Origin: Batrachochytrium dendrobatidis JAM81
Lineage: Eukaryota; Chytridiomycota; Chytridiomycetes; Rhizophydiales
Direction of reading: 5' to 3'
Assembly (NCBI RefSeq): GCF_000203795.2
Contig: NW_006281110.1
Coordinates: forward strand, 459,854 to 523,853
Length of the DNA: 64,000 bases
Positions 37,934-49,721 of this stretch are shown piece after piece. Made by a program: the position numbers and the translations under genes. The notes under the pieces are model-generated. The model did no database searches and was not told where the DNA came from. It was given only the letters and a program-made list of their open reading frames with translations. Position 1 is the stretch's first letter, and every line of letters starts with the position of its first letter.

Positions 37934-38712
37934 CAATGGCAAATTGATTTGGTCGACCTTTCTAAATATTCAACATGCAGTGCTGCATACAAATATTTGT
38001 GTGGAATTGATGTGTTTAGTAGGGTATCTAATACTACAGATGCAATCGGATTGATACTTGATGTTCAATAGCATATTGTTATTCAATTGACAGCAATCGA
38101 GTCTGCTAGCCATAGATTTCAAGTCTGTCACAAGCAAAAGGTGTTTGCCATGTCACTGTCAATGTTGGAAATCACAACATACAATGTTTGATTGAAGGAT
38201 TTAACACGTCATTACAAAACATCATTGCATTTTATCAAGAATATACTAAAACTAACCAATACGTTAATGTCTTGCAATATATTGTGTTTGACTACAATCA
38301 CATCCATCATTGTGCAGTTGGTGATATTGCTGAATCAAGATATGAAAGTGATCCATCAAGTGGTTCAATTAAACAAACGCTCAAACCATTCAATCAATGT
38401 TGGACATTGTGTTGGAATACTGAACGGACAAAACTTTGAGTAAAATACAAGTCAATATACAGTAATGCTGTGTATACTATGTATACTGTGGTTAGTGGAA
38501 ATGATTACTCGTATCCAATTTCAGATGATGATCAAATAATTCAGACTTGCAAGTATTATGAATTTGAACACATCCAAATTGCTGAAACGTTTGTTACTGA
38601 ATCTAGAAACCCAGATCCAACAATGACAAATAAGCAGCGTCAAAACAGAAATCAATTGGATGCATTATCAACAATTAGTGAACATGAAAACAACAAAACA
38701 TATGACATATGA
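37934..38712 (+). pseudogene. broken integrase (Maverick/Polinton, retroviral-type DDE)
   Basis: The catalytic-core start QWQIDLVDLSKY ... YKYLCGIDVFSR is seen at 37934-38030. The core end FNTSLQNIIAFYQEYTKTNQ ... VFDYNHIHH appears at about 38197-38320 in the next piece. The C-terminal SH3/chromo-like tail VYTMYTVVSGNDYSYPI ... YYEFEHIQIAET lies at 38468-38590, followed by DPTMTNKQRQNRNQLDALST. Stops and frameshifts separate the three pieces. The middle region with the second catalytic Asp is unreadable. Confidence 0.78.
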
Positions 38713-38762
38713 CAGGACATTTCAAACAACTTGTTTTCTAGAGCAACTATAAATGCCATTCA

Positions 38763-39216
38763 TTGACTCGATCAAAAACTACAACAATTACTTGCAATGC
38801 ATTCAAATTGGCATCCATATTTGACATCCATATCCAGTTCAACAACAGAAAGCGTCAAACAAGTGGTATCATGATTACTATTCACAAAACAAGCAAATTG
38901 GACAACAGCGCTGTCGCAACTATTATGCTTCAAACTCGGAATCAGAAACGATGCAACTGAAAAAAGTACACAAAGTCGACGAGTATAGTTTATTGAATCA
39001 TTCAACACCAATATCGTGTACTTGAAAATCAATGACATCAATTCCACCATCTACCAGAAACATGTTTGTTGCGGTGTGTTATTTGATGTGAATTTTGCAC
39101 CAGTATGTTCATGTCTGATACAATTCATGGCTGTTATTGGACTTTGTACGACTGAACCATTGTTCAAATGTGATGATGTTTATGCCACTGTTGTAAATCG
39201 AATGGGTGCATATTGA
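38763..39216 (+). pseudogene. decayed open frame downstream of the integrase
   Basis: One frame reads almost continuously from about 38765 to 39216 with one or two stops and protein-like content (for example YQKHVCCGVLFDVNFAPV). It keeps the orientation of the polymerase and integrase pieces and may be another gene of the same element. The family was not recognised. Confidence 0.35.
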
Positions 39217-39220
39217 AATA

Positions 39221-40166
39221 CACGATATTGTTGTAATAGATTGTAGTATGTCTTGTATGCAAAATACGACAATCTCTCGAGTTTGAATGCATTGTAAATA
39301 TACACCAGACACTCATCAAACTGAACCTTTTAGTATTTTTGCTTGCTTGAAATAGCTCCAGCAAACAAACAAGCGTTTCTGCAATGCACATTGTGTATGC
39401 TACACCAACAACATCATTGATGGTCAATACACACAAGTATTGTTGATGTAAACTTTGAGTTCCAAGGCTATATTTTTTGTAGCGGGAAAGTCGTGGGAAA
39501 GCTGCACATTGAGTTGCACTGTTTTGAGTTCCACTTTAAACATCTGATCAGTAATCAGTTCATACTTTTGACAAACTCATGTATGAATGATGGTTTATCA
39601 GTGTTTTTATCAAGACACGGTAAATTGGTTTATGATCAATGATTTGAGTTGGTTACAATGTTACTGCATTGATGACATTGAGTGTATCTGAAACAGCAAC
39701 ATCATCACTTGATTCGAGTTTCAAACGATAATTATTGACTGTGTTGGTCAAACTGCAGATTCACTGCTATTGGATTCAGACTCTGTAGCAAGACTTTCTG
39801 TGTGATGAAACAGCATTTGAAACTGCACCAATCGTTTGATTTCCAATAGTATGAGCATCGTCCATAATAATATCATCAGCGGTTTGTGGTTCAGCATTTA
39901 CCATTATACGAATCCAGTGAATATGTTGATTGTAGGTTTGTAAACAGAAACTACAAGCCAGCAGTGACATCGTTTGCAGACTTTTGATTTTGAAAGCATT
40001 CATAATTTCTGATATGTTACTATCATACAGCAAGGCACATTGCAGTTGCTCAATTTGTCGACTTTTATTGGCAGCCTATTATGTACCAGCCACAAATCTG
40101 ATATTGCAGACTTGTAGATGCTTAAAAATGGGTTTTTAAATTGACTTTTAAGTTTGAGGATTGTGA
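39221..40166. other. spacer between the transposon remnant and the inverted repeat
   Basis: About 950 bp with only short frames on both strands (longest 85-90 codons, minus strand, no recognisable motif). Nothing functional could be assigned. Confidence 0.4.
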
Positions 40167-40420
40167 ACATATGATGGCATATTGATGGTTGTCATTATTG
40201 TCAAGTGTGTTGCAGTTGATTGAAGACACAAAAGAATGAATCAATATTCGATTGTGTTGTTTATTAACAAGAAAGTGAGTGTGTTCATAAGATGGAAGAA
40301 ACCAAGAAAGTCATGTGAATTCCAGTTCAAACGTCATTGTTGATGGTTTTTAATTGTTAAACTATTCAGAAATGTCTCACATTCACACACTACTAATGTC
40401 TCACACAATGCAAGTCAACA
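40167..40420 (+). repeat. left arm of a 254-bp inverted repeat
   Basis: The reverse complement of 48227-48480 aligns with this segment over 254 bases without gaps; I count about seven differences by eye (about 97% identity). Weak similarity continues some 15 bases further out (GATTGTGAACATATG against GATCGTGGACATATG). The inner end lies 195 bp before the start codon of the Crinkler-like gene. A third, more diverged copy lies at 43482-43830. Confidence 0.9.
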
Positions 40421-40457
40421 CTCTCACACTAGTAATGTCTCACATTAATGAGACATT
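40371..40457 (+). promoter_or_regulatory. cluster of AATGTCTCAC motifs upstream of the Crinkler-like gene
   Basis: AATGTCTCAC occurs at 40371-40380, 40395-40404 and 40434-40443. An inverted copy of its core (GAGACATT, 40450-40457) makes a near-perfect palindrome around 40445-40460. The first two copies lie in the inverted repeat, so they also stand upstream of the ARM/DUF4246 gene in the right arm. Spacing from the ATG (160-245 bp) would suit a promoter element; this is inference. Confidence 0.4.
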
Positions 40458-40615
40458 AATTCTGGTGTAAATTTGACTAATTTCCAAATATTTAAATCGT
40501 GTGAATTGTCTTGAAATATCCCAAAATTTTGTTATTTTGACTCGATTAAAAAGTCGATTTTTGTTTTACAATTTGACAAATAAATTGCTTTTTTACTCTT
40601 TTTTCTTTTGATAAA

Positions 40616-42361
40616 ATGCCAAAACGATTCCTCAATGTTGAATATGACACTATTTCTACTGAAATCGATGTGACAGACTTTGAAGACCCGAGTGACGTTC
40701 AGGATGCTATCAAGGCAGAGTATGGTCCTGCTATGGCTGACATTGATGCTCCTCAACTCCAACTCTACACCGACAGTAACAAGGACCAACTAATCAACAC
40801 CTGGGCTTTACTCGACTCTCTTCCTCAAGAATACTTTACTCAAGATGGTTCTTGTGTTGTTATTGATATTTCATCACCCACCAGGAAACCAAGCAAGAGT
40901 GCCATTTTTGATGCAGGTTCTACTTCTTTATCAACAGCAAACCATCAAGACTTTTCTCCTAAACGACAACGTACTGAACCCAATGTTTTGACAACCCAAT
41001 TCAAGTCGTTTGCAAACGCCCAGCTGGTCGATGAATGTATACAGTCGACAGATCATGTCCTTTTCCCATACACCCAAGACAAAATACAAAAACTATATGT
41101 TAGAGAGTGCTATCATGATGTGTTTGGCTTGCTTTTGGATCAAATTGATTGTGGCATGGAATCATTTGCAATATCTGGAACATCAGGCATCGGAAAGTCA
41201 CTGTTTTTTGTCTACATATTGCATCGCTTGATCGATGACTTTACCACGAAAACTCTGTCCTTGAAGCCAAACCGGATTGTTTATCAAGTGGGATCCTCGT
41301 ACAAATGCTTTGACTTGCAGCATAAAATCGTCACAGAGCTTGGACTTGAAGTGGCCAATATTGTTTGGAAACAAGACACATTGTATATTGTTGATGGACA
41401 TACGACTCCAAGATCATCATCTTGTATTGTATTGTTCATGTCATCTCCTCAGTCTGAAGGATACAAGGAGTTCGTCAAACAAAAGATGGCAAGGCAATGG
41501 TATTTTCCTGTTTGGACTTTGGACGAGTTACAGGCTTGCCGACGTCATTGCTATCCGGATGTACCCATTGAGACTATCAATGAGAGATATCGCATGTATG
41601 GTGGTGTAGCTCGTTCTGTCTTTGATATTGTATCAAATCCAATGGAGAAAGCTTTGGCTGATGTTGATGCAGTCAAAGGGGTACGAAACATTGGATTCAC
41701 AATCAAAATATCTGCAAATACTCATACCTTGCTTCATACCATTGTGTCGGACGACGGACAGTACAAATTCCTGCATGTTGATATTGCTTCAAGATATGTT
41801 GGAGAACAACTCTGGCAACGTCATTCTGCTCAAATGATTACCAATCTGCAGCAAATGTTTGATGGTATTCCAACCGAGATTTCAAGACATTTGTTTGAAA
41901 TATACGGACATGTGATTTTTTGTACTGGTGGACAAACTCTCAAATGCAGATGCCTGGAAGATGGTAAAGCAACAAAGATTACTTTGGATGCACTCAATGG
42001 CCAACGAATTACATTTGGAATAAATACTATCCCTACTGCAGCAGCACTTGATGGCAACTATTACGAACCGACAGATGACGATAATTTTCCAGCAATTGAT
42101 TCACTCAGTCGACAGGGAATGTTCCAATTTACAGCTGTTGCTGAACATCCTATTCGCGAAGTTGATATTCTTACAAAACTGTGCAATTTGTATGATGAAC
42201 CCAAACTTTATTTTGTGGTTCCACCTCACCAGTTTAAAGGGTTCAAAAAGCAGAGTTTCAAACCAATTGATGGCACAGAGCAGGTACAACCCATTCATGG
42301 ATTGAAGCAATACGTTATACAACTCCCACTAATACAACCAGATTTGAAGAGTAGAAAGTGA
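40616..42361 (+). CDS. Crinkler (CRN)-like protein with P-loop NTPase and nuclease-like C-terminus
   Basis: A single exon of 581 residues with an intact frame. The N-terminal about 95 residues form a header like that of chytrid CRN proteins (DAIKAEYG ... IDAPQLQLYTD). The NTPase has Walker A SGTSGIGKS near residue 187-195 and a likely Walker B in DTLYIVDGH. It continues with the CRN/RHS-type blocks CIVLFMSSPQSEGYKEFVKQ and WYFPVWTLDELQACR, then YGGVARSVFD. The C-terminal blocks (DNFPAIDSL ... MFQFTAVAEHPI ... LYFVVPPHQFKGFKKQSF) match the PD-(D/E)XK-like part of such proteins as I recall it. No signal peptide or membrane segment is seen. In CRN families these proteins are proposed effectors or NTPase-nuclease modules; the function here is unknown. 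The gene lies in an inverted-repeat-bounded segment. Confidence 0.85.
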   Translation: MPKRFLNVEYDTISTEIDVTDFEDPSDVQDAIKAEYGPAMADIDAPQLQLYTDSNKDQLINTWALLDSLPQEYFTQDGSCVVIDISSPTRKPSKSAIFDAGSTSLSTANHQDFSPKRQRTEPNVLTTQFKSFANAQLVDECIQSTDHVLFPYTQDKIQKLYVRECYHDVFGLLLDQIDCGMESFAISGTSGIGKSLFFVYILHRLIDDFTTKTLSLKPNRIVYQVGSSYKCFDLQHKIVTELGLEVANIVWKQDTLYIVDGHTTPRSSSCIVLFMSSPQSEGYKEFVKQKMARQWYFPVWTLDELQACRRHCYPDVPIETINERYRMYGGVARSVFDIVSNPMEKALADVDAVKGVRNIGFTIKISANTHTLLHTIVSDDGQYKFLHVDIASRYVGEQLWQRHSAQMITNLQQMFDGIPTEISRHLFEIYGHVIFCTGGQTLKCRCLEDGKATKITLDALNGQRITFGINTIPTAAALDGNYYEPTDDDNFPAIDSLSRQGMFQFTAVAEHPIREVDILTKLCNLYDEPKLYFVVPPHQFKGFKKQSFKPIDGTEQVQPIHGLKQYVIQLPLIQPDLKSRK

Positions 42362-43440
42362 TAGTTGTATTTTACAACTGATATGACATATTTTCAACCA
42401 TTCCAACCATTCCAATTATTTGATAACTCAATGTTGTTAATACAACTGGCATCATACAATTGTGTCCATTCAAGGGATTGAGATGCATTTAGCATGGAAA
42501 GTCCAAATTCAAGTTTACTATTGTAACATACGCTTTTTGACAAATAATGGCTCTGTTGACACATCCTTGTACCATCTAATCGTGTCCGATTGAAGCATCA
42601 AGTATGAGTTTGGCAGACAACTTGCAACTTTAATCAACTTGTATACGGTAAGCATTTTGATAATGTCGGCATTTGTCAGGATATCACACCTGACAACTTT
42701 GAATCGAATTTAGCAGTGATTATAGGTGAAAATACCAATCTAGCACATCAACAATTCCAAACAATTCCAGACGATCCGATTCTGATTAGTTCTAAAACCA
42801 GAACTCATATTGTAACCACAAACCAAATGCGTTCAATATCAATCACAATCATCATGGACGAATGTATCAAAGTATGTCGTCAACTTTTGAATATTTTAGC
42901 AGTCTTGCTTAAAACAAGTGGTATCATCCAGTGCACTACATATACTACTCATGGTCATTGACAACTGATTGTGTAGCAATAGTGTTAGTGTATTGTGAGC
43001 AAAGTATTGATGATGGAATAACACACATTTTGGGTATGATACTAGAAACACACAAACTTCAAATAACTGCGCAACTATATGTTCAAACTCTGCTCCAAAT
43101 ATATGTTGTTGTATACAGCAAACCTGGTAAAATGTTGTATTTTGTCATGGCTGCATTGTTCCGAGACATAATTCAAGGCTTGTTACAATGGGTTACTGGA
43201 TTTGATATCCAATAGGTTTGATAAAAGTGTTGCAATTGACATTTATGTTTGTGGATAACAATATTTTGGAATCAACTCGTTCAATTTGGAAATCAGTTGG
43301 ATTTCTTGCTGATATCAATATCAATGTCAGTTCAACTCAGTTGATTGGAGTAGCACTCGAGTGCTTGCAGTATTGACTTTGGTTCAAACGGTAATACACA
43401 GTGACACTGATTATCATTTCAGTGAAAAATGATACAGAAA
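42362..43440 (+). other. decayed open frames between CRN and the central repeat copy
   Basis: Plus-strand frames at about 42640-42960, 42931-43215 and 43240-43370 can be read one after another with frame changes (for example QQFQTIPDDPILISSKTRTH, then LVYCEQSIDDGITHILGM, then STRSIWKSVGFLADIN). They look like one former protein of 250 or more residues broken by stops. The family was not recognised. A structural gene from the neighbouring mobile element is possible but unproven. Confidence 0.4.
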
Positions 43441-43481
43441 TGATCATTCCCAAAACAAGGAATCTGAATGACTGAAATGTA

Positions 43482-43830
43482 GATTGTGAGCATATGATGG
43501 CATGTTGATGGTCATCATTATTGGCAAGTAGATCAAAGGCATGAAAGAATGATCCAATAAACTAATTGCGTTGTTTATTAAAGAACGGGAAGTGTGTTTT
43601 ATAATATGGGAGAGCGATGAACAATACCAGAAGGAAGGAATGTATGCGAGCCATCGTTCAAGCATCATTGTTGAGGATATCTGATTGCTATAGATCTTCC
43701 ATCCGAGGTGACTGGTGATCACAACTGATGATCACATCCCAGATATATACAAAGGATTCACTCAGTGCAAATCAACAGACTTGACATCTCAACACTCTCA
43801 CATTACAATGACATATGTATTAATTGACCA
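43482..43830 (+). repeat. third, diverged copy of the inverted-repeat sequence
   Basis: Same orientation as the left arm. GATTGTGAGCATATGATGG at its start matches the outer end of that arm, followed by TTGATGGTCATCATTATT, TTGTTTATTAAAGAA and, near the inner end, CAACACTCTCACATTA. It has many substitutions and gaps, so it is older than the pair at 40167 and 48480. No intact gene follows it. Confidence 0.75.
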
Positions 43831-44780
43831 ATGGTATTTGGTGTGTTGGGCGATGATATCAACCTGTAGTCAAGGTTTGACTATCTGAACATGTCGGTGA
43901 CTTTTTACCAACTGTGTGCAACTCGATGTCCAATATCGAGTCATGTCATTGGTCAATTGATTGGTTCAATTCATCAGTGGGTTTGCTGGATCCATATGGT
44001 GTGTAGCACTTTCAAGAGTATGTTGAATCTGTTGCAGTATTGGAGCTTTGTAAACGGATCAACATACTAACCTGATCATGATTGTGGTGGTTATTGCAGT
44101 CGAGTCGTAAAGCTTATTCTGGCAATCATTGATGGTTTGGACAATCGTTTGAATAATTGTTTGGATGTCAGGTTACGGTATTCTGATTGACAACTCGACT
44201 CGGATACAACTTATTTGGACAATTACTGATCGATGGATTGGACAATGAACTAGCAATCAATCAACACATTGACAGATTTACCATCCCAAATGGAAACAAC
44301 GACAATCCAGTTGTAATCCATATTGAGCCTTGAATTCAAACAGTCGTGAATCAAATCATTAATAAACTACAAAAACAGTCCAATATGCCAACTCGCATTT
44401 ATCCATGACTCAATATGTGATGTTCAAATGTCTAATATTCAGACTGTACTGATTGCAATTGTGGTTGTAATTGTGGTTGTGTGTAAATATCAATCCAATA
44501 CTCGATTCAATACTTGATTCAACTTGAGCATGTACAGTTTTGTAGTAATCCATTTGATCACATTGACAGAATCAAGCAATGATCTGATTCAACAACACCG
44601 AATGATGCATCCATATCACTTGTATCAATCAATTGTACAATCAGTCAATATAATCAACAGTCACTGTCATGATTGACATGATTGATTCAATTCATTCAAT
44701 TTATTCGATCCATTTAATTGCATAGATCTGACTGACATTGCAACTCATTGTTGTATAAATCACAACCTCACAATCAATTA
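43831..44780. other. gene-free stretch with a decayed frame and simple-sequence runs
   Basis: A plus-strand run at about 44196-44335 reads coherently (YNLFGQLLIDGLDNELAINQ, then HIDRFTIPNGNNDNPVVIHI) and then hits stops. It stands downstream of the third repeat copy, where the other two copies each have a gene, so it may be the remains of a third gene. Near 44440-44740 the DNA is rich in ATTCA/GATTG-type simple repeats. Confidence 0.4.
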
Positions 44781-47700
44781 TCAATGATCAAGATTATACT
44801 TCTGTTCATATATGTATTCGTTGTATGCTCTTGTGATTTGAGTTCGGTCACTTGTCAATTCATCTCGATAGTGTTTGGCCTCAGCTGGTGATTGAACACC
44901 TTGAATATACTGCGTGGCATCATTCCACAGTTCAGGCGGTATGGGTGTCTTGTCAAGACTCGAGTTGTACCATTGTGGTTGTTGCGGAGCCACATGCGCA
45001 GTCGAAACAATCCGACGAGATGGATTCACTACAAAAAATGTCAAAATCTTGCAATGTCCTGGTTGAGTTGGATCTGCAAGTTCAAATGATTGTTCTTTGT
45101 GTTGATATCGATTGGGATAAACTACACATCGACCATTTGATGCTTCAAGCGATCCTATATACTGATTCTGTGGTGATTCTCGATCAATTCCATACACATC
45201 TTCCCAATACATATTAGATGCTATTTGGTATTCAAACCGATCAACAGCCACGCGGAAATCGAGTTTGGGTGTGGTGATATTTTCCACGTCGTAGTAATAC
45301 AGTCCAATCGCAACAATCGATTCGTTAATTGGACCTTCAATGTTCCAGTTTCCCTCGTCGTATTTAGGTTTGGATGGTGTCAGTTGAATGTTGGTGAGTT
45401 TGACAATGACTTGTAGATTACGACCACGCAGTGACACTGGTTTTGCTGATTCATAATCGGGTTCAAAATGTTCCGGAAGTGTTGGTACATACACGGGACG
45501 AGTGACTTGAGTGTCTGGTTCCATATCATCATGATCTGATTGGCTTGGTGGTTCATATCCCTTTGTGCGATTGCAAATATCAATATACTTGAACACTGGA
45601 TGTATCGTTCTGAACAGACTTTCAAACATTGGGACAAAACATTTGAATATTTTGGCAATGCACTTGTACATGTCTCGATGCCATATCGGATTCAGATTGT
45701 TGATGTATGAGTTGATGGTCACACTGCCATCCTGTTCGACACGAAATTCACTCGGAAGCCATTGGAACTTGCGTGATATAAACTCGAAATCGCCTTCAAT
45801 GATGGGCGTATCTGAAACAAGTCGAGTCGATAACAATATATCGCATGGTACCATTGTGGTGTATTTGAGTCGTATATTCAGTGGTGAAATCATCGTTTGT
45901 CCATATACAACACTGTACATTGATGCATCAATCAGATTGTGCACCATTTGACCAGTGTTGTGATTTGATCCATGTTCAATATCCGATACATTTGTCATCA
46001 ATCGCGTGTATATATTGTCAGGTATGCCATTGTCCAGTATATACGTCAGTTCAACAGGTCCTGGGACAATTGTGCCCAATCCATCACTGCCACTACAAAC
46101 AAGCTGTTTGACAAAAAACTCGAGTTGTTCCAATGCAAGATTAAATGTTGATGGCAATATATTCTGATCGAGTGAGTCAGCCCTCCATTGCTCCACAATA
46201 TGCTGGTTTGTGATATCGATCCACCACATGGGTTTGCAAAGTATAGATTGCAAATACTGGATATACCGTATTTCGACAAGTGTGCGTGCCTTTCCATGTG
46301 CATACCCAGCCATTCCAGAACTCATATCAATTTTGGCATTGTCGTTGTATGGCTGAATATCCGAGCTAGCAGTGTAAGCCCGATGCTGGAAACACGTTTC
46401 AATGATTTGACCAGCAATCCTCTTGTTTCTGTAGTCGGTATCATCCGATTTTACAATAGCCGTTAGATTTTCAAGTATCCCGCCTTGATCCAACTCGGTA
46501 CGTATTGAACTGTCGGAATGATTGTCGGCAAGATCAACAAGTATTTTGAGTAGTTTTACAATACTAGTGTCACCACTATCATAACCATACAAGCGTATAT
46601 TTCTACGTGAAAGAATAGTGTTGAGTTGCTTCACAATTCCATAGTCTTGAAACGCCTTGATCATCTCGGCCTTGTTTGTAGATTTCTCAATCATGTTGTT
46701 GACATAATCAAACATGCGCAAAGAGTAACCCATACTGAGATTGCACATCGATATCGTCAATTGCTCAAAAACCAACGATCGTACAAGCGATACAGGAAAG
46801 TCGCGCATATTGGATGCAGCAGTTCCTGCTACCTTGATTATGCGTGTTTTTAGTTCAGAGTCGTTGCTGTATTTGATACACAAGTCGTTCAGTATTTGAA
46901 TTAAACCCGACCTTATAAACTCGGCTGAAATCACTTCACAATCTGCATAGTTGCAAAAACTCTGAATAGTATCAATACTTTCATAAATCACTTCTTGATC
47001 GACACTCCTGTATTCATGTCATGTCAATCCAACCATATCAAATTTACCAATTGTGATGACTGGACACACATTCATGCATAACACCACATACCTGAGCGTA
47101 TTGACCAGTGCTGGAATGATGCCACATTCCACTGCTTTTACTGGCTTATGGTAATAAATATTTAAAAATATGGTTTGAAGATTTCTGATAAGACCAACAG
47201 CAACTGAACCATTGGATGATTCCAGTCGTGAGACAAGTCTTGATACCACGATGCTAAACTAATGATATTGTTCAATGTCAAGTATACAATCAGATCAACA
47301 TGACAAGACACTGACCAAACTGATCCAATATTGTATCATTGTAAACATACATTTTCATCGTCAATATCATGACAAGCTTTCAAAAACAGGCCAATCGCCA
47401 ATGTGAGCACTTGTTGATCAGACTCGTGAACAATAATCTCAACCATAGGCTTGATGTCAAATCCATCCTCCTCACTCCAGCGTTTATATTTGTACAACTC
47501 TGTATGTGCGTTTATCGCCTATATGCATATCGACACTAGATGAGTTGAATGTCAATCATTTGGTCAATATCAATCATGACTTGCCATCATTTTGACTTGA
47601 CGGTTTGATGATTGCATGAGTTGTGAGAGTTGGTTGTTTAATCGATGTGATACTTTGAAATGATAATCACTATGTACAATACCCAAAAATGCTGTAGTAA

Positions 47701-48084
47701 ACTTCATTACTTTGATCTACAACACATGTTGATTAGTTTAGTCATGAACAATCCATTATTGTTATAATATATGAATACCTGTAAACTGGGTTGATTATAC
47801 TCCAAATGCTCGGTTATGATATCTTCCAGTCCAATCCTCTGTAAGCGCTGCACTGCATATGTAGACTCTACCATTTCAAACCAACACAAAGTCAGCAACA
47901 GTTTGAATTCATCAATAACACAATGGCTATTAAGCTTACTGTAATCATATTCTTTCAGCTCCAATAGCAATACAAGCAGTCTGTCCCATATTTCATCAGC
48001 CTTGTATAGTTGAGCATCTGTTGTTAACAGTTTCAAATCTTCCATATGTTTGATCAACTCTTTCATGATATCATCCAACTCCAT
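44781..48084 (-). CDS. ARM-like repeat protein fused to a C-terminal DUF4246 domain
   Basis: Five exons: 48084-47779, 47716-47678, 47518-47351, 47258-47092, 47007-44781; 968 residues in frame. The N-terminal about 430 residues are helical and repeat-like in the manner of ARM/HEAT proteins (blocks such as CGIIPALVNTLR, SGLIQILNDLC, DYGIVKQLNTILSRR, QGGILENLTAIVKS). The C-terminal half matches DUF4246: RGRNLQVIVKLTNIQLTPSK, then EGNWNIEGPINESIVAIGLY near 775-795, and YQHKEQSFELADPTQPGH near 860. DUF4246 is thought to be 2-oxoglutarate/Fe(II) dioxygenase-like. Where I recall relatives reading W-H-V-E-G, this protein has W-N-I-E-G, so a metal-binding His may be lost. It starts 142 bp inside the right arm of the inverted repeat and faces the CRN gene. 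The second intron donor (after 47678) was chosen for phase. Confidence 0.8.
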
Positions 48085-48226
48085 GTTTGATAAAATTAGT
48101 AAAGTTGAATTTTGATGACAATTTCATTTATGCGAATGTCCAACAATTACCAATTGTTTGTTTGGATTGTTAAACATTGATAGTGTATGTACTTGTATAT
48201 GATTTGGAGTGTTTGAATGTGCAGTC

Positions 48227-48480
48227 TGTTGACTTGCATTGTGTGAGACATTACTAGTGTGTGAATGTGAGACATTTCTGAATAGTTTAACAATCAAAAA
48301 CCATCAACAATGACGTTTGAACTGGGATTCACATGGCTTTCTTGGTTTCTTCCATTTTATAAACACACTCACTTTCTTGTTAATAAACAACACAATCGAA
48401 TATTGATTCATTCTTTTGTGTCTTCAATCAACTGTAACACACTTGACAATAATGACAACCATCAATATGCCATCATATGT
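48227..48480 (-). repeat. right arm of the 254-bp inverted repeat
   Basis: Inverted partner of 40167-40420. It contains inverted AATGTCTCAC motifs (48242-48280 region). The short plus-strand frame that crosses it is not taken as a gene. The outer flank (48481 onward) does not match the outer flank of the left arm beyond about 15 bases. Confidence 0.9.
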
Positions 48481-49721
48481 CCACGATCTTCAAGAAATGT
48501 GTTGCGCAAAATGGTCCCAATTGTCCAACTTGTAGCACTAGTTCAACGTTGTTTAATAATCAACTTGACAATCAACTTGAATTCAAAGCTGTAAATATTC
48601 TTGTTGTTCGATCAAGATATTGCAGTGTGACGCTGATTTTCATTTAAAGGATTGTGAGTATTCACCACACAAATGTCTTTTGTTCTAGTATTGCTACATG
48701 TGATGCGTATACAGAGCATCTTAAACAAGAATGTCTTGACTTGTAACACAACGAAATGAAATGGTTACAAACTACTGGAAAATAAACTTCGAGATCAATC
48801 AACTTGACATTTCAAAAGCTTCATCGTTTGGTTTCCAAATCAATCTTTTGGATCTCCAATTAAACTTTGCTATTATAAAAAATGATAATTTTATTGTCAA
48901 CAACCAAAACCGCTGGTTGGTACTTTGCATCCATTCAAATAAAAGAGCGTGTATAGATATTTATACTGCATTCATACGACAACAAGTTTACAAAAGTATT
49001 GTTATTACAAACCTAACATGTTGTCATTCAGTCAAATATACACATCAGATTGCAGAATTACCAACACCATCACTATGTACATTAGTCGTTGGCGTTGTAT
49101 CCCTTCCGAGAATTCGTTTGTTTGACTTTGGTGATCTCAATGATTTAAAGTGATTACTTTGCCAATGCAGTTGTTGCATAAAATATTCAATAGTTTGGTT
49201 TGGAGTCGCTGTTGACCAACCATCATAGAGTGTAACAGTTGATGAAAATATTGATGCTCAAACAAAGAACCAGAAACTTCAATAAACCATTGCTTTCAAA
49301 TTGTAAAAAAATGATAGTCATGTACAAGTTGTTATATTGCGATTCAAGTATGTTGTAAATCTTGTCTGAATAATTGTTTCAAATTACTATAAACCACTGT
49401 ATGGAGTTTATGAAAATTTAAAAAGCGGAATCGCATTTTCAGAATACTTCTCAAGACTAGAATGCTTAACTATATAGTTTGTCAAGTTTAGAGTTACTCG
49501 AAAAAAATTGTGATTTGGTGTCAAACGTTTTCAAGAACATGCTCAATTAAGTATTTGGTGATTGATATGCCATAATATCATTAATGCAATTCAAACTTGT
49601 ATTGAAATAACAAGATCTTGACGGTATAAAATAAAATGCGCTTTATTAGTATCGCAATATTGACTCTGTCAAGCAAATGACAGTTAGATTTAATGTGAAG
49701 TGCATTAGGCTGAAATTAGTA
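48481..49721. other. accessory/core boundary stretch with one unassigned open frame
   Basis: A 130-codon plus-strand frame (48761-49153) is the only sizeable one. Its product has no recognised motif and the stretch lacks good splice partners, so it may be chance or a relic. Near 48652 the string GGATTGTGAG resembles the outer edge of the inverted repeat. Nothing else was seen up to the end of the CCDC81 gene. Confidence 0.35.

What the first reader, a model, noticed from the sequence alone, without database searches (positions are those of the whole stretch)
40167..48480. 254-bp inverted repeat bounds an 8.3-kb block holding a Crinkler-like gene and an ARM/DUF4246 gene that face each other
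The arms at 40167-40420 and 48227-48480 align without gaps, with about seven differences by eye, although they are 8 kb apart in a region otherwise full of decay. Each arm lies just upstream (142-195 bp) of an intact gene reading inward. Either the block is a mobile unit with terminal inverted repeats carrying effector-like cargo, or the two genes acquired the same promoter module by duplication. Both would explain how CRN and DUF4246 families spread and stay co-regulated in chytrids. I know of no description of such a unit.
Basis: partly seen in the sequence, partly recalled or inferred. Interest (0 to 1): 0.82.

Follow-up and report, generated by a model that had tools for sequence, protein, structure and literature searches.

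The report
Shared promoter cassette of Crinkler genes
The two matching arms are not the ends of a jumping gene but two copies of a short stretch that sits in front of a large Crinkler gene family in the frog-killing chytrid fungus and has been swapped in front of a few unrelated genes, one of them here.

Summary
The inverted repeat is real: 254 nt, 7 mismatches, no gaps, extending to 267 nt. It is not the terminal repeat of a mobile 8.3-kb block. All 42 Crinkler starts found by pattern have it about 450 nt upstream. Between Crinkler loci with unrelated upstream flanks (44% identity) and differing bodies (62%), module and leader stay 96-97% identical. DUF4246 genes normally lack it (6 of 6 read); 3 of 67 DUF4246 matches have it upstream, and in the window the native DUF4246 promoter stops at the module's 3' end. 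Chimeric modules point to exchange inside the module; one joins a Crinkler upstream flank to a gene with a signal-peptide-like start. Best reading: a promoter-proximal cassette exchanged by ectopic recombination or gene conversion and captured by DUF4246. The mobile-unit idea fails; the promoter-module idea is supported in structure; promoter activity and co-regulation are untested.

The parts
38121..40153 (+). Upstream flank of the left module, shared with other Crinkler loci (class A flank)
   Evidence: Anchored homology of 2046 nt at 96.6-97.6% with at least 8 other loci
40155..40444 (+). Crinkler-type module (contains the left arm 40154/40167-40420); TATA-like TTCATAAG at 40284-40291
   Evidence: detected at 1.7e-40 by a profile made from non-Crinkler modules only. 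3' end by comparison with the ends
40445..40615 (+). Leader between module and Crinkler ATG, 96-99% conserved across Crinkler loci
40616..42361 (+). Crinkler (CRN) gene, 581 aa, MPKRFLNVEY N-terminus, P-loop-like GTSGIGKS
   Evidence: ORF; homologues named Crinkler; N-terminal motif as printed in PMC5364385 (passages)
43478..43833 (+). Second (M-type) module, related to the arms, pointing at the 3' flank of DUF4246; no gene assigned
43834..44780 (-). 3' flank of the DUF4246 gene, cut off at 43834 at the end of the M-type module
   Evidence: 33 of 39 other scored hits start at this point; 12 of 12 loci read continue with other sequence
44781..48084 (-). DUF4246 gene, split by introns (exon borders not determined); ATG at 48084
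   Evidence: ORFs 44781-46808 and 47707-48084, PF14033 E=3.1e-93
48085..48171 (-). Remnant of the native DUF4246 leader; native homology ends at 48171
48168..48492 (-). Module in front of DUF4246 (contains the right arm 48227-48480/48493): Crinkler-type for about 267 nt, then a 3' part like other modules; TATA-like TTTATAAAA at 48355-48363; its last bases AACA (48168-48171) overlap the native DUF4246 leader

Best explanation
The two arms are copies of one cassette that lies just upstream of a whole Crinkler subfamily and very probably holds its core promoter and 5' leader. Shown: a module with sharp ends plus its leader is nearly identical across Crinkler loci whose upstream flanks and coding bodies are unrelated; it belongs to a wider dispersed family of modules, some of them in front of genes with signal-peptide-like starts; in the window it stands where DUF4246 genes normally have another promoter; and chimeric modules carry the flank of one gene family and the gene of another. 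Inferred: it acts as promoter and 5'UTR (CCAAT-like/TCAAT and TATA-like words at a near-fixed distance from the ATG), and it is the stretch of homology at which dispersed loci recombine or convert each other, so that flanks and genes are exchanged at its edges. The inverted pair in the window is then a composite: a Crinkler duplicon that ends in an M-type module lies tail to tail with a DUF4246 duplicon that had acquired a Crinkler-type module. It is not a transposable unit.
For: 42 of 42 Crinkler starts found by pattern have the module: 40 with the arm core 447-478 nt upstream, the other two on reading. Identity between 6 of 11 class A and all 5 class B Crinkler loci: upstream flank 44.2%, module 96.0%, leader 97.1%, header 89.3%, body 61.6%; single cases. 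Six of six native DUF4246 upstream regions have no module, and homology to the window starts at 48171 for the four tested and for 38 of 39 other scored hits, the last one starting further in. L018 joins 760 nt of Crinkler flank and a Crinkler module to a DUF4246 gene by another junction. L045 switches from Crinkler flank and Crinkler-type module to another module type and a gene with a signal-peptide-like start (0 of 500 permutations). Modules precede signal-peptide-like starts also in L060, L061, L066, L068 (by eye).
Against: No expression or transcript-start data. Within one flank class the module (96.8%) is no more conserved than the flank (97.4%), so selection on it is not shown. Loci are related by segmental duplication, so counts are not independent events. 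Eight of the non-Crinkler modules read (L063, L064, L065, L067, L070, L072, L073, L074) show no clear gene within about 1 kb. Gene conversion and reciprocal recombination are not told apart. The hybrid nature of the window DUF4246 module rests on 6-7 informative sites to the right of the break.
Confidence: 0.74

Rival explanations
1. The 8.3-kb block is a transposable unit whose terminal inverted repeats are the arms, with Crinkler and DUF4246 as cargo.
For: The arms are convergent, 96-97% identical and near the two ATGs.
Against: The arm core is at 71 pattern places; left homology continues 2046 nt outside the arm; the outer flanks of the two arms do not match each other and show no duplication on reading; no other inverted pair of Crinkler-type arms within 15 kb; the Crinkler 3' end plus M-type module recurs at four C1 loci and the DUF4246 3' flank at 33 other scored hits.
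Confidence: 0.03
2. The module is the remnant of a transposable element, for example a solo LTR, that landed in promoters and was kept.
For: Sharp ends: TG at the 5' end in 14 of 14 modules checked and an AACA- or (once) GCA-type 3' end in 11 of 14, next to differing flanks; a retrotransposon gag/integrase ORF lies near one Crinkler locus; many dispersed copies, some without an evident gene.
Against: No target-site duplication in any of the 11 modules with both ends (compared by eye); no terminal inverted repeat in 7 modules tested; no ORF over 131 aa in the 3.3-kb loci L030-L036; Bd is reported to have almost no LTR/Gypsy (PMC9926174 passages); module and Crinkler start are linked in 42 of 42 cases. 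The 3' ends were sought with the expected motif, so the 11 of 14 is not an independent test.
Confidence: 0.15
3. Plain segmental duplication: Crinkler loci were copied whole and recently, and the module is similar only because everything is.
For: Many loci share 2-4 kb of upstream flank; 24 of 42 Crinkler starts lie within 60 kb of a contig end against about 17% expected.
Against: Between classes A and B only the cassette is conserved while flank and body are not; L021 and L056 share 93-98% in module and leader with bodies at 42-58%; modules of the same family stand before other gene types.
Confidence: 0.08

Closest known systems
mimp MITEs in promoters of Fusarium oxysporum effector genes (PMC3599309, passages)
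   Same: Short repeats upstream of effector genes of different families, usable to predict new candidates; one effector pair there is also flanked by inverted repeats.
   Different: mimps have ~27-bp terminal inverted repeats, lie at varying distance up to 1.5 kb and proved dispensable for expression; here there are no terminal inverted repeats and the module with its leader sits at a near-fixed distance and includes the presumed core promoter.
BatrLINE-1/2/3 and BatrREP repeats flanking M36 metalloprotease genes in B. salamandrivorans (PMC9926174, passages)
   Same: Repeats linked to the expansion of a virulence gene family in the sister species.
   Different: Those upstream repeats are LINE-type and flank M36 genes; the passages seen do not mention Crinklers or promoters (0 occurrences of each term).
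Crinkler N-terminus / C-terminus shuffling in oomycetes (recalled, not looked up)
   Same: A conserved start of the gene is combined with varying bodies.
   Different: Here the conserved part is non-coding promoter and leader, better conserved than the N-terminal coding part.
upsA/B/C upstream classes of Plasmodium var genes (recalled, not looked up)
   Same: A conserved upstream sequence class shared by members of a shuffled, partly subtelomeric family.
   Different: As recalled, ups classes stay with one family; here the module also fronts unrelated families.

Membership tests
Transposon with terminal inverted repeats (the 8.3-kb block) | Inverted repeats form the outer limits of the unit | tested here: not met
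   Left homology runs 2046 nt past the arm
Transposon with terminal inverted repeats (the 8.3-kb block) | Further copies of the whole unit | tested here: not met
   No other inverted pair of Crinkler-type arms within 15 kb among 73 module places
Transposon with terminal inverted repeats (the 8.3-kb block) | Target-site duplication outside the arms | tested here: not met
   Outer sequences at 40100-40166 and 48481-48540 compared by eye, none seen
MITE (mimp-like) for the module alone | Terminal inverted repeats | tested here: not met
   Best 14-mer match 6-9 of 14 at the ends of 7 modules
Solo LTR for the module alone | TG...CA ends | tested here: met
   5' TG in 14 of 14; 3' ...CA motif found in 11 of 14
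Solo LTR for the module alone | Target-site duplication | tested here: not met
   0 of 11 modules with both ends (by eye)
Solo LTR for the module alone | Paired copies around reverse transcriptase elsewhere in the genome | not tested
   The own genome could not be searched by profile and was not available as a file
Crinkler (CRN) family, B. dendrobatidis class 1 | MPKR[YF]LNVEY N-terminus | tested here: met
   Window ORF begins MPKRFLNVEY; motif from PMC5364385 passages
Crinkler (CRN) family, B. dendrobatidis class 1 | Homology to proteins named Crinkler | tested here: met
   Homologues named Crinkler in Bd, Rozella, Aphanomyces; several other homologues bear PF20147. No Pfam Crinkler model matches the window ORF itself at E up to 1
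DUF4246 family | PF14033 above cut-off | tested here: met
   313.5 bits against a cut-off of 26.7
Promoter | Transcription starts in it | not testable with these tools
   No expression data; only near-fixed spacing to the ATG and TATA/CCAAT-like words, named from recall

The most novel reading that the evidence does not exclude
Batrachochytrium dendrobatidis carries a superfamily of discrete promoter cassettes that move between unrelated, mostly effector-like gene families (Crinkler, several families with signal-peptide-like starts, DUF4246) by recombination inside the cassette, so that new genes are enlisted under one stage- or infection-linked control and a gene's regulon can be read from its cassette instead of its protein.
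Probability: 0.35. Interest if true: 0.78.

Novelty: new variant of a known kind. Interest (0 to 1): 0.56.

Why it matters
How Crinkler genes multiplied in the frog-killing chytrid and how they are controlled is open; PMC5364385 calls them enigmatic (passages). One cassette in front of every Crinkler start of one class that was found here, and present in front of DUF4246 and secreted-type genes, makes the question testable: it predicts which genes should be co-expressed, gives a sequence handle for finding further candidate genes, and shows promoter capture at defined junctions.

Tried and rejected
Terminal inverted repeats of a mobile block: rejected. MITE: rejected, no terminal inverted repeats. 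Solo LTR: kept as a rival only; the ends fit but no target-site duplications were seen. Origin of the right arm from the left arm by local conversion: not resolved; the right arm's best match is the left arm at 97.2%, tied with L011 at 97.2% (40 arms of full length compared). Convergent pairs as a rule: of 14 neighbour pairs under 15 kb 8 are convergent, 5 tandem and 1 divergent, but 5 of the convergent ones (C3, C11, C15, C31, C33) pair a Crinkler module with one other subtelomeric module type. A whole-genome profile search of the module was not possible, and DNA searches score at most 40 candidates, so the number of modules is a lower bound; one of the 71 pattern matches (C31:1055181) may be chance.

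Literature: searches for Batrachochytrium+Crinkler+promoter, DUF4246+Batrachochytrium (no paper), Batrachochytrium/subtelomeric/Crinkler, five terms on promoter and transposable elements, shared promoter/gene conversion, two-speed genome and homogenization showed no description of this cassette in their listings. Only passages of PMC11797018, PMC5364385, PMC12595416, PMC3599309 and PMC9926174 were read; supplements were not available.
Full report
What was claimed and what is there. The inverted repeat is as described: 254 nt, seven differences, no gaps, extending to 267 nt at 96%. The genes are an uninterrupted 581-aa ORF at 40616-42361 and a DUF4246 gene on the other strand with its ATG at 48084. 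The first protein begins MPKRFLNVEY, the N-terminal motif that PMC5364385 gives for one class of B. dendrobatidis Crinklers (31 genes there; passages), and its homologues include proteins named Crinkler in B. dendrobatidis, Rozella and Aphanomyces. Contig lengths listed with JAM81 homologues (1082576, 561733, 4429270, 1484462) equal those of contigs C33, C9, C1 and C27, so the window is most likely from B. dendrobatidis JAM81.

The arm is not special to this block. The whole-genome DNA search lists 40 scored copies out of 70 candidates at 93-100%. A 21-nt core pattern with up to three mismatches matches 71 times, 43 of them exactly, against none for the reversed pattern. Of 22 arms read first (20 fetched loci plus the two window arms), 17 are followed by a Crinkler frame opening 191-195 nt after the arm, three more (L010, L012, L020) by a Crinkler start found by pattern whose frame is interrupted early, and two by DUF4246 (window, L018). 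Of a second batch of 20, 16 have the whole module plus a Crinkler start; the other four are L037 (DUF4246), L038 and L039 (arm joined to a DUF4246 3' flank; near-identical paralogous loci) and L045 (secreted-type gene). Of the 19 regions of the third batch, chosen mostly from diverged matches, three (L058, L059, L062) are Crinkler.

Seen from the gene side: a pattern for the Crinkler start finds 42 places (control 0). Forty have the arm core 447-478 nt upstream, start to start, on the same strand; the other two were read and also have the module, altered in the core. That is 42 of 42. By contrast 3 of 67 DUF4246 matches have it within 3.5 kb upstream of the domain; some of the 67 are pieces of one gene.

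The module. Aligning Crinkler arms, the third window copy (43478-43833; genome hits) and non-Crinkler copies gives a 391-position profile from 21 seeds. The ends are sharp: TG at the 5' end of 14 of 14 modules checked (2 of 16 named loci were dropped by the length filter), and the expected 3' motif in 11 of 14, ten ending AACA and one GCA, next to differing flanks. The alignments show CCAAT-like words (TCAAT in the Crinkler type) and TATA-like words in fixed order (names recalled). The homology is not circular: a profile from 15 modules that are neither Crinkler nor DUF4246 nor L045 finds the window Crinkler module at 1.7e-40 and the window DUF4246 module at 3e-60; the reversed window gives nothing at E up to 1, and one other stretch of the window a weak 0.3. 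Each of the 15 is found at 1e-40 or better by a profile of the others with near-duplicates left out, though on the common alignment. The window holds three copies: 40155-40444 (+), 43478-43833 (+) and 48168-48492 (-).

Cassette, not plain duplication. Two groups of Crinkler loci have unrelated upstream flanks. Comparing 6 of 11 class A loci with all 5 class B loci gives 44.2% identity upstream, 96.0% in the module, 97.1% in the leader, 89.3% in the first ~70 codons and 61.6% in the body; within class B the bodies agree at only 52.2% although the flanks agree at 96.3%. Single comparisons show the same: L021 shares 95, 98 and 94% in module, leader and header but 42-54% after that; L013 shares 96 and 99% in module and leader, 63% in the header and 96% at the 3' end of the body. 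So flank, cassette and body have been exchanged independently. A caution: within class A the flank is as similar as the module (97.4 and 96.8%), so low divergence alone is no evidence of selection on the module.

How DUF4246 got it. Native DUF4246 genes have another promoter: none of 6 upstream regions read (four fetched for this, one of them partly masked; two lying in earlier loci) contains a module. The homology of four native upstreams to the window starts at 48171; in the genome search 38 of 39 other scored hits start at query base 56, which is 48171, and one at 74 (40 of 57 candidates scored). The module ends at 48168, so its last four bases, AACA, are shared with the native leader. L037 has the same junction. 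L018 has a different one: 760 nt of Crinkler flank, a Crinkler module, then about 500 nt of other sequence before the DUF4246 leader. The window's DUF4246 module looks like a hybrid: Crinkler-type for about 267 nt, then a part that resembles other modules (0 of 500 permutations with each of its three best partners of 13, but only 6-7 sites lie right of the break; L037 gives 1-2 of 500). On the other side of the gene the DUF4246 3' flank breaks at 43834, at the end of the M-type module; 33 of 39 other scored hits start at the same base or the next, and 12 of 12 of them that were read continue with other, mutually similar sequence. L038 and L039 show the same breakpoint, joined to a Crinkler-type module.

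A telling chimera. L045 carries the class A Crinkler flank and about the first 92 nt of a Crinkler-type module, then another module type and a gene starting MRYLNFSILATFF, which looks like a signal peptide (translated and judged by eye). Its breakpoint test reaches 0 of 500. L060, L061, L066 and L068 also place modules before signal-peptide-like starts, and L069 before a charged, coiled-coil-like one (by eye). Not every member of such a family has it: in the Crinkler loci six related secreted-type ORFs were found, without a module detected next to them at E up to 1e-3. Other modules (L063, L064, L065, L067, L070, L072-L074) show no clear gene within about 1 kb; either these genes are decayed or spliced, or the module is not only a promoter.

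Why not a mobile block. The left arm is not an edge, the right outer flank is single-copy apart from repeats of 75-91 nt, no other inverted pair of two Crinkler-type arms lies within 15 kb, and the halves occur apart: the Crinkler 3' end plus M-type module at four C1 loci, the DUF4246 3' flank at many loci. Convergent pairs at 8.43-8.45 kb on C3, C15, C31 and C33 combine a Crinkler module with another module type near contig ends.

Mechanism, with status. Shown: positions, junctions, chimeras, homogeneity. Inferred: promoter function; exchange by ectopic recombination or gene conversion within the module; co-regulation. Not excluded: an origin as a transposable element, since the ends look like TG...CA, though no target-site duplication (0 of 11, by eye) and no terminal inverted repeat (7 modules) was found, and LTR/Gypsy elements are reported as almost absent in Bd (PMC9926174 passages).

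Novelty. Repeats in effector promoters are known (mimps, PMC3599309 passages), and repeats flank M36 genes in the sister species (PMC9926174 passages). A cassette that includes the presumed core promoter and leader at near-fixed distance, homogenised across one Crinkler class and captured by unrelated genes, did not appear in the listings of the seven searches named under Tried and rejected. I rate it a new variant of a known kind.

Noticed in passing
43478-43833: A third, diverged module copy inside the block with no gene of its own; it stands between a Crinkler 3' flank and a DUF4246 3' flank.
   Followed up: yes
Contigs C3, C15, C31, C33 near their ends (also C11 at 14.1 kb): Pairs of convergent modules 8.43-8.45 kb apart, one Crinkler-type and one of another type (CATATGACGACATATTGATGT core), probably one subtelomeric duplicon; no long ORF found behind the second type in L057.
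   Followed up: partly
17 places, e.g. L009:6368-6134 (-): A further module subtype with an identical 30-nt word (AACCAATGAGTTAATTGTGTTGTTTATTGA) at 17 places; in L009, L016, L022 and L026 it lies about 1.5 kb upstream of the Crinkler module. L022 also holds a gene starting MENRQFYIQYL, like the second Crinkler motif of PMC5364385.
   Followed up: partly
Whole genome, 67 matches: DUF4246 is a large family here (67 PF14033 matches, some of them pieces of one gene); no paper in the library holds both DUF4246 and Batrachochytrium.
   Followed up: no
P0003, P0006, P0095: B. dendrobatidis proteins 62-94% identical to this Crinkler are named 'squalene synthetase-like protein' by a source, probably a misannotation.
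   Followed up: no
L010:1-2007 (-): LTR-retrotransposon-type gag/integrase ORF in a Crinkler locus (Pol_BBD, rve, gag_pre-integrs).
   Followed up: no
Crinkler loci L013, L021, L056: Header and body of Crinkler genes vary independently of each other and of the promoter, as if recombined.
   Followed up: partly
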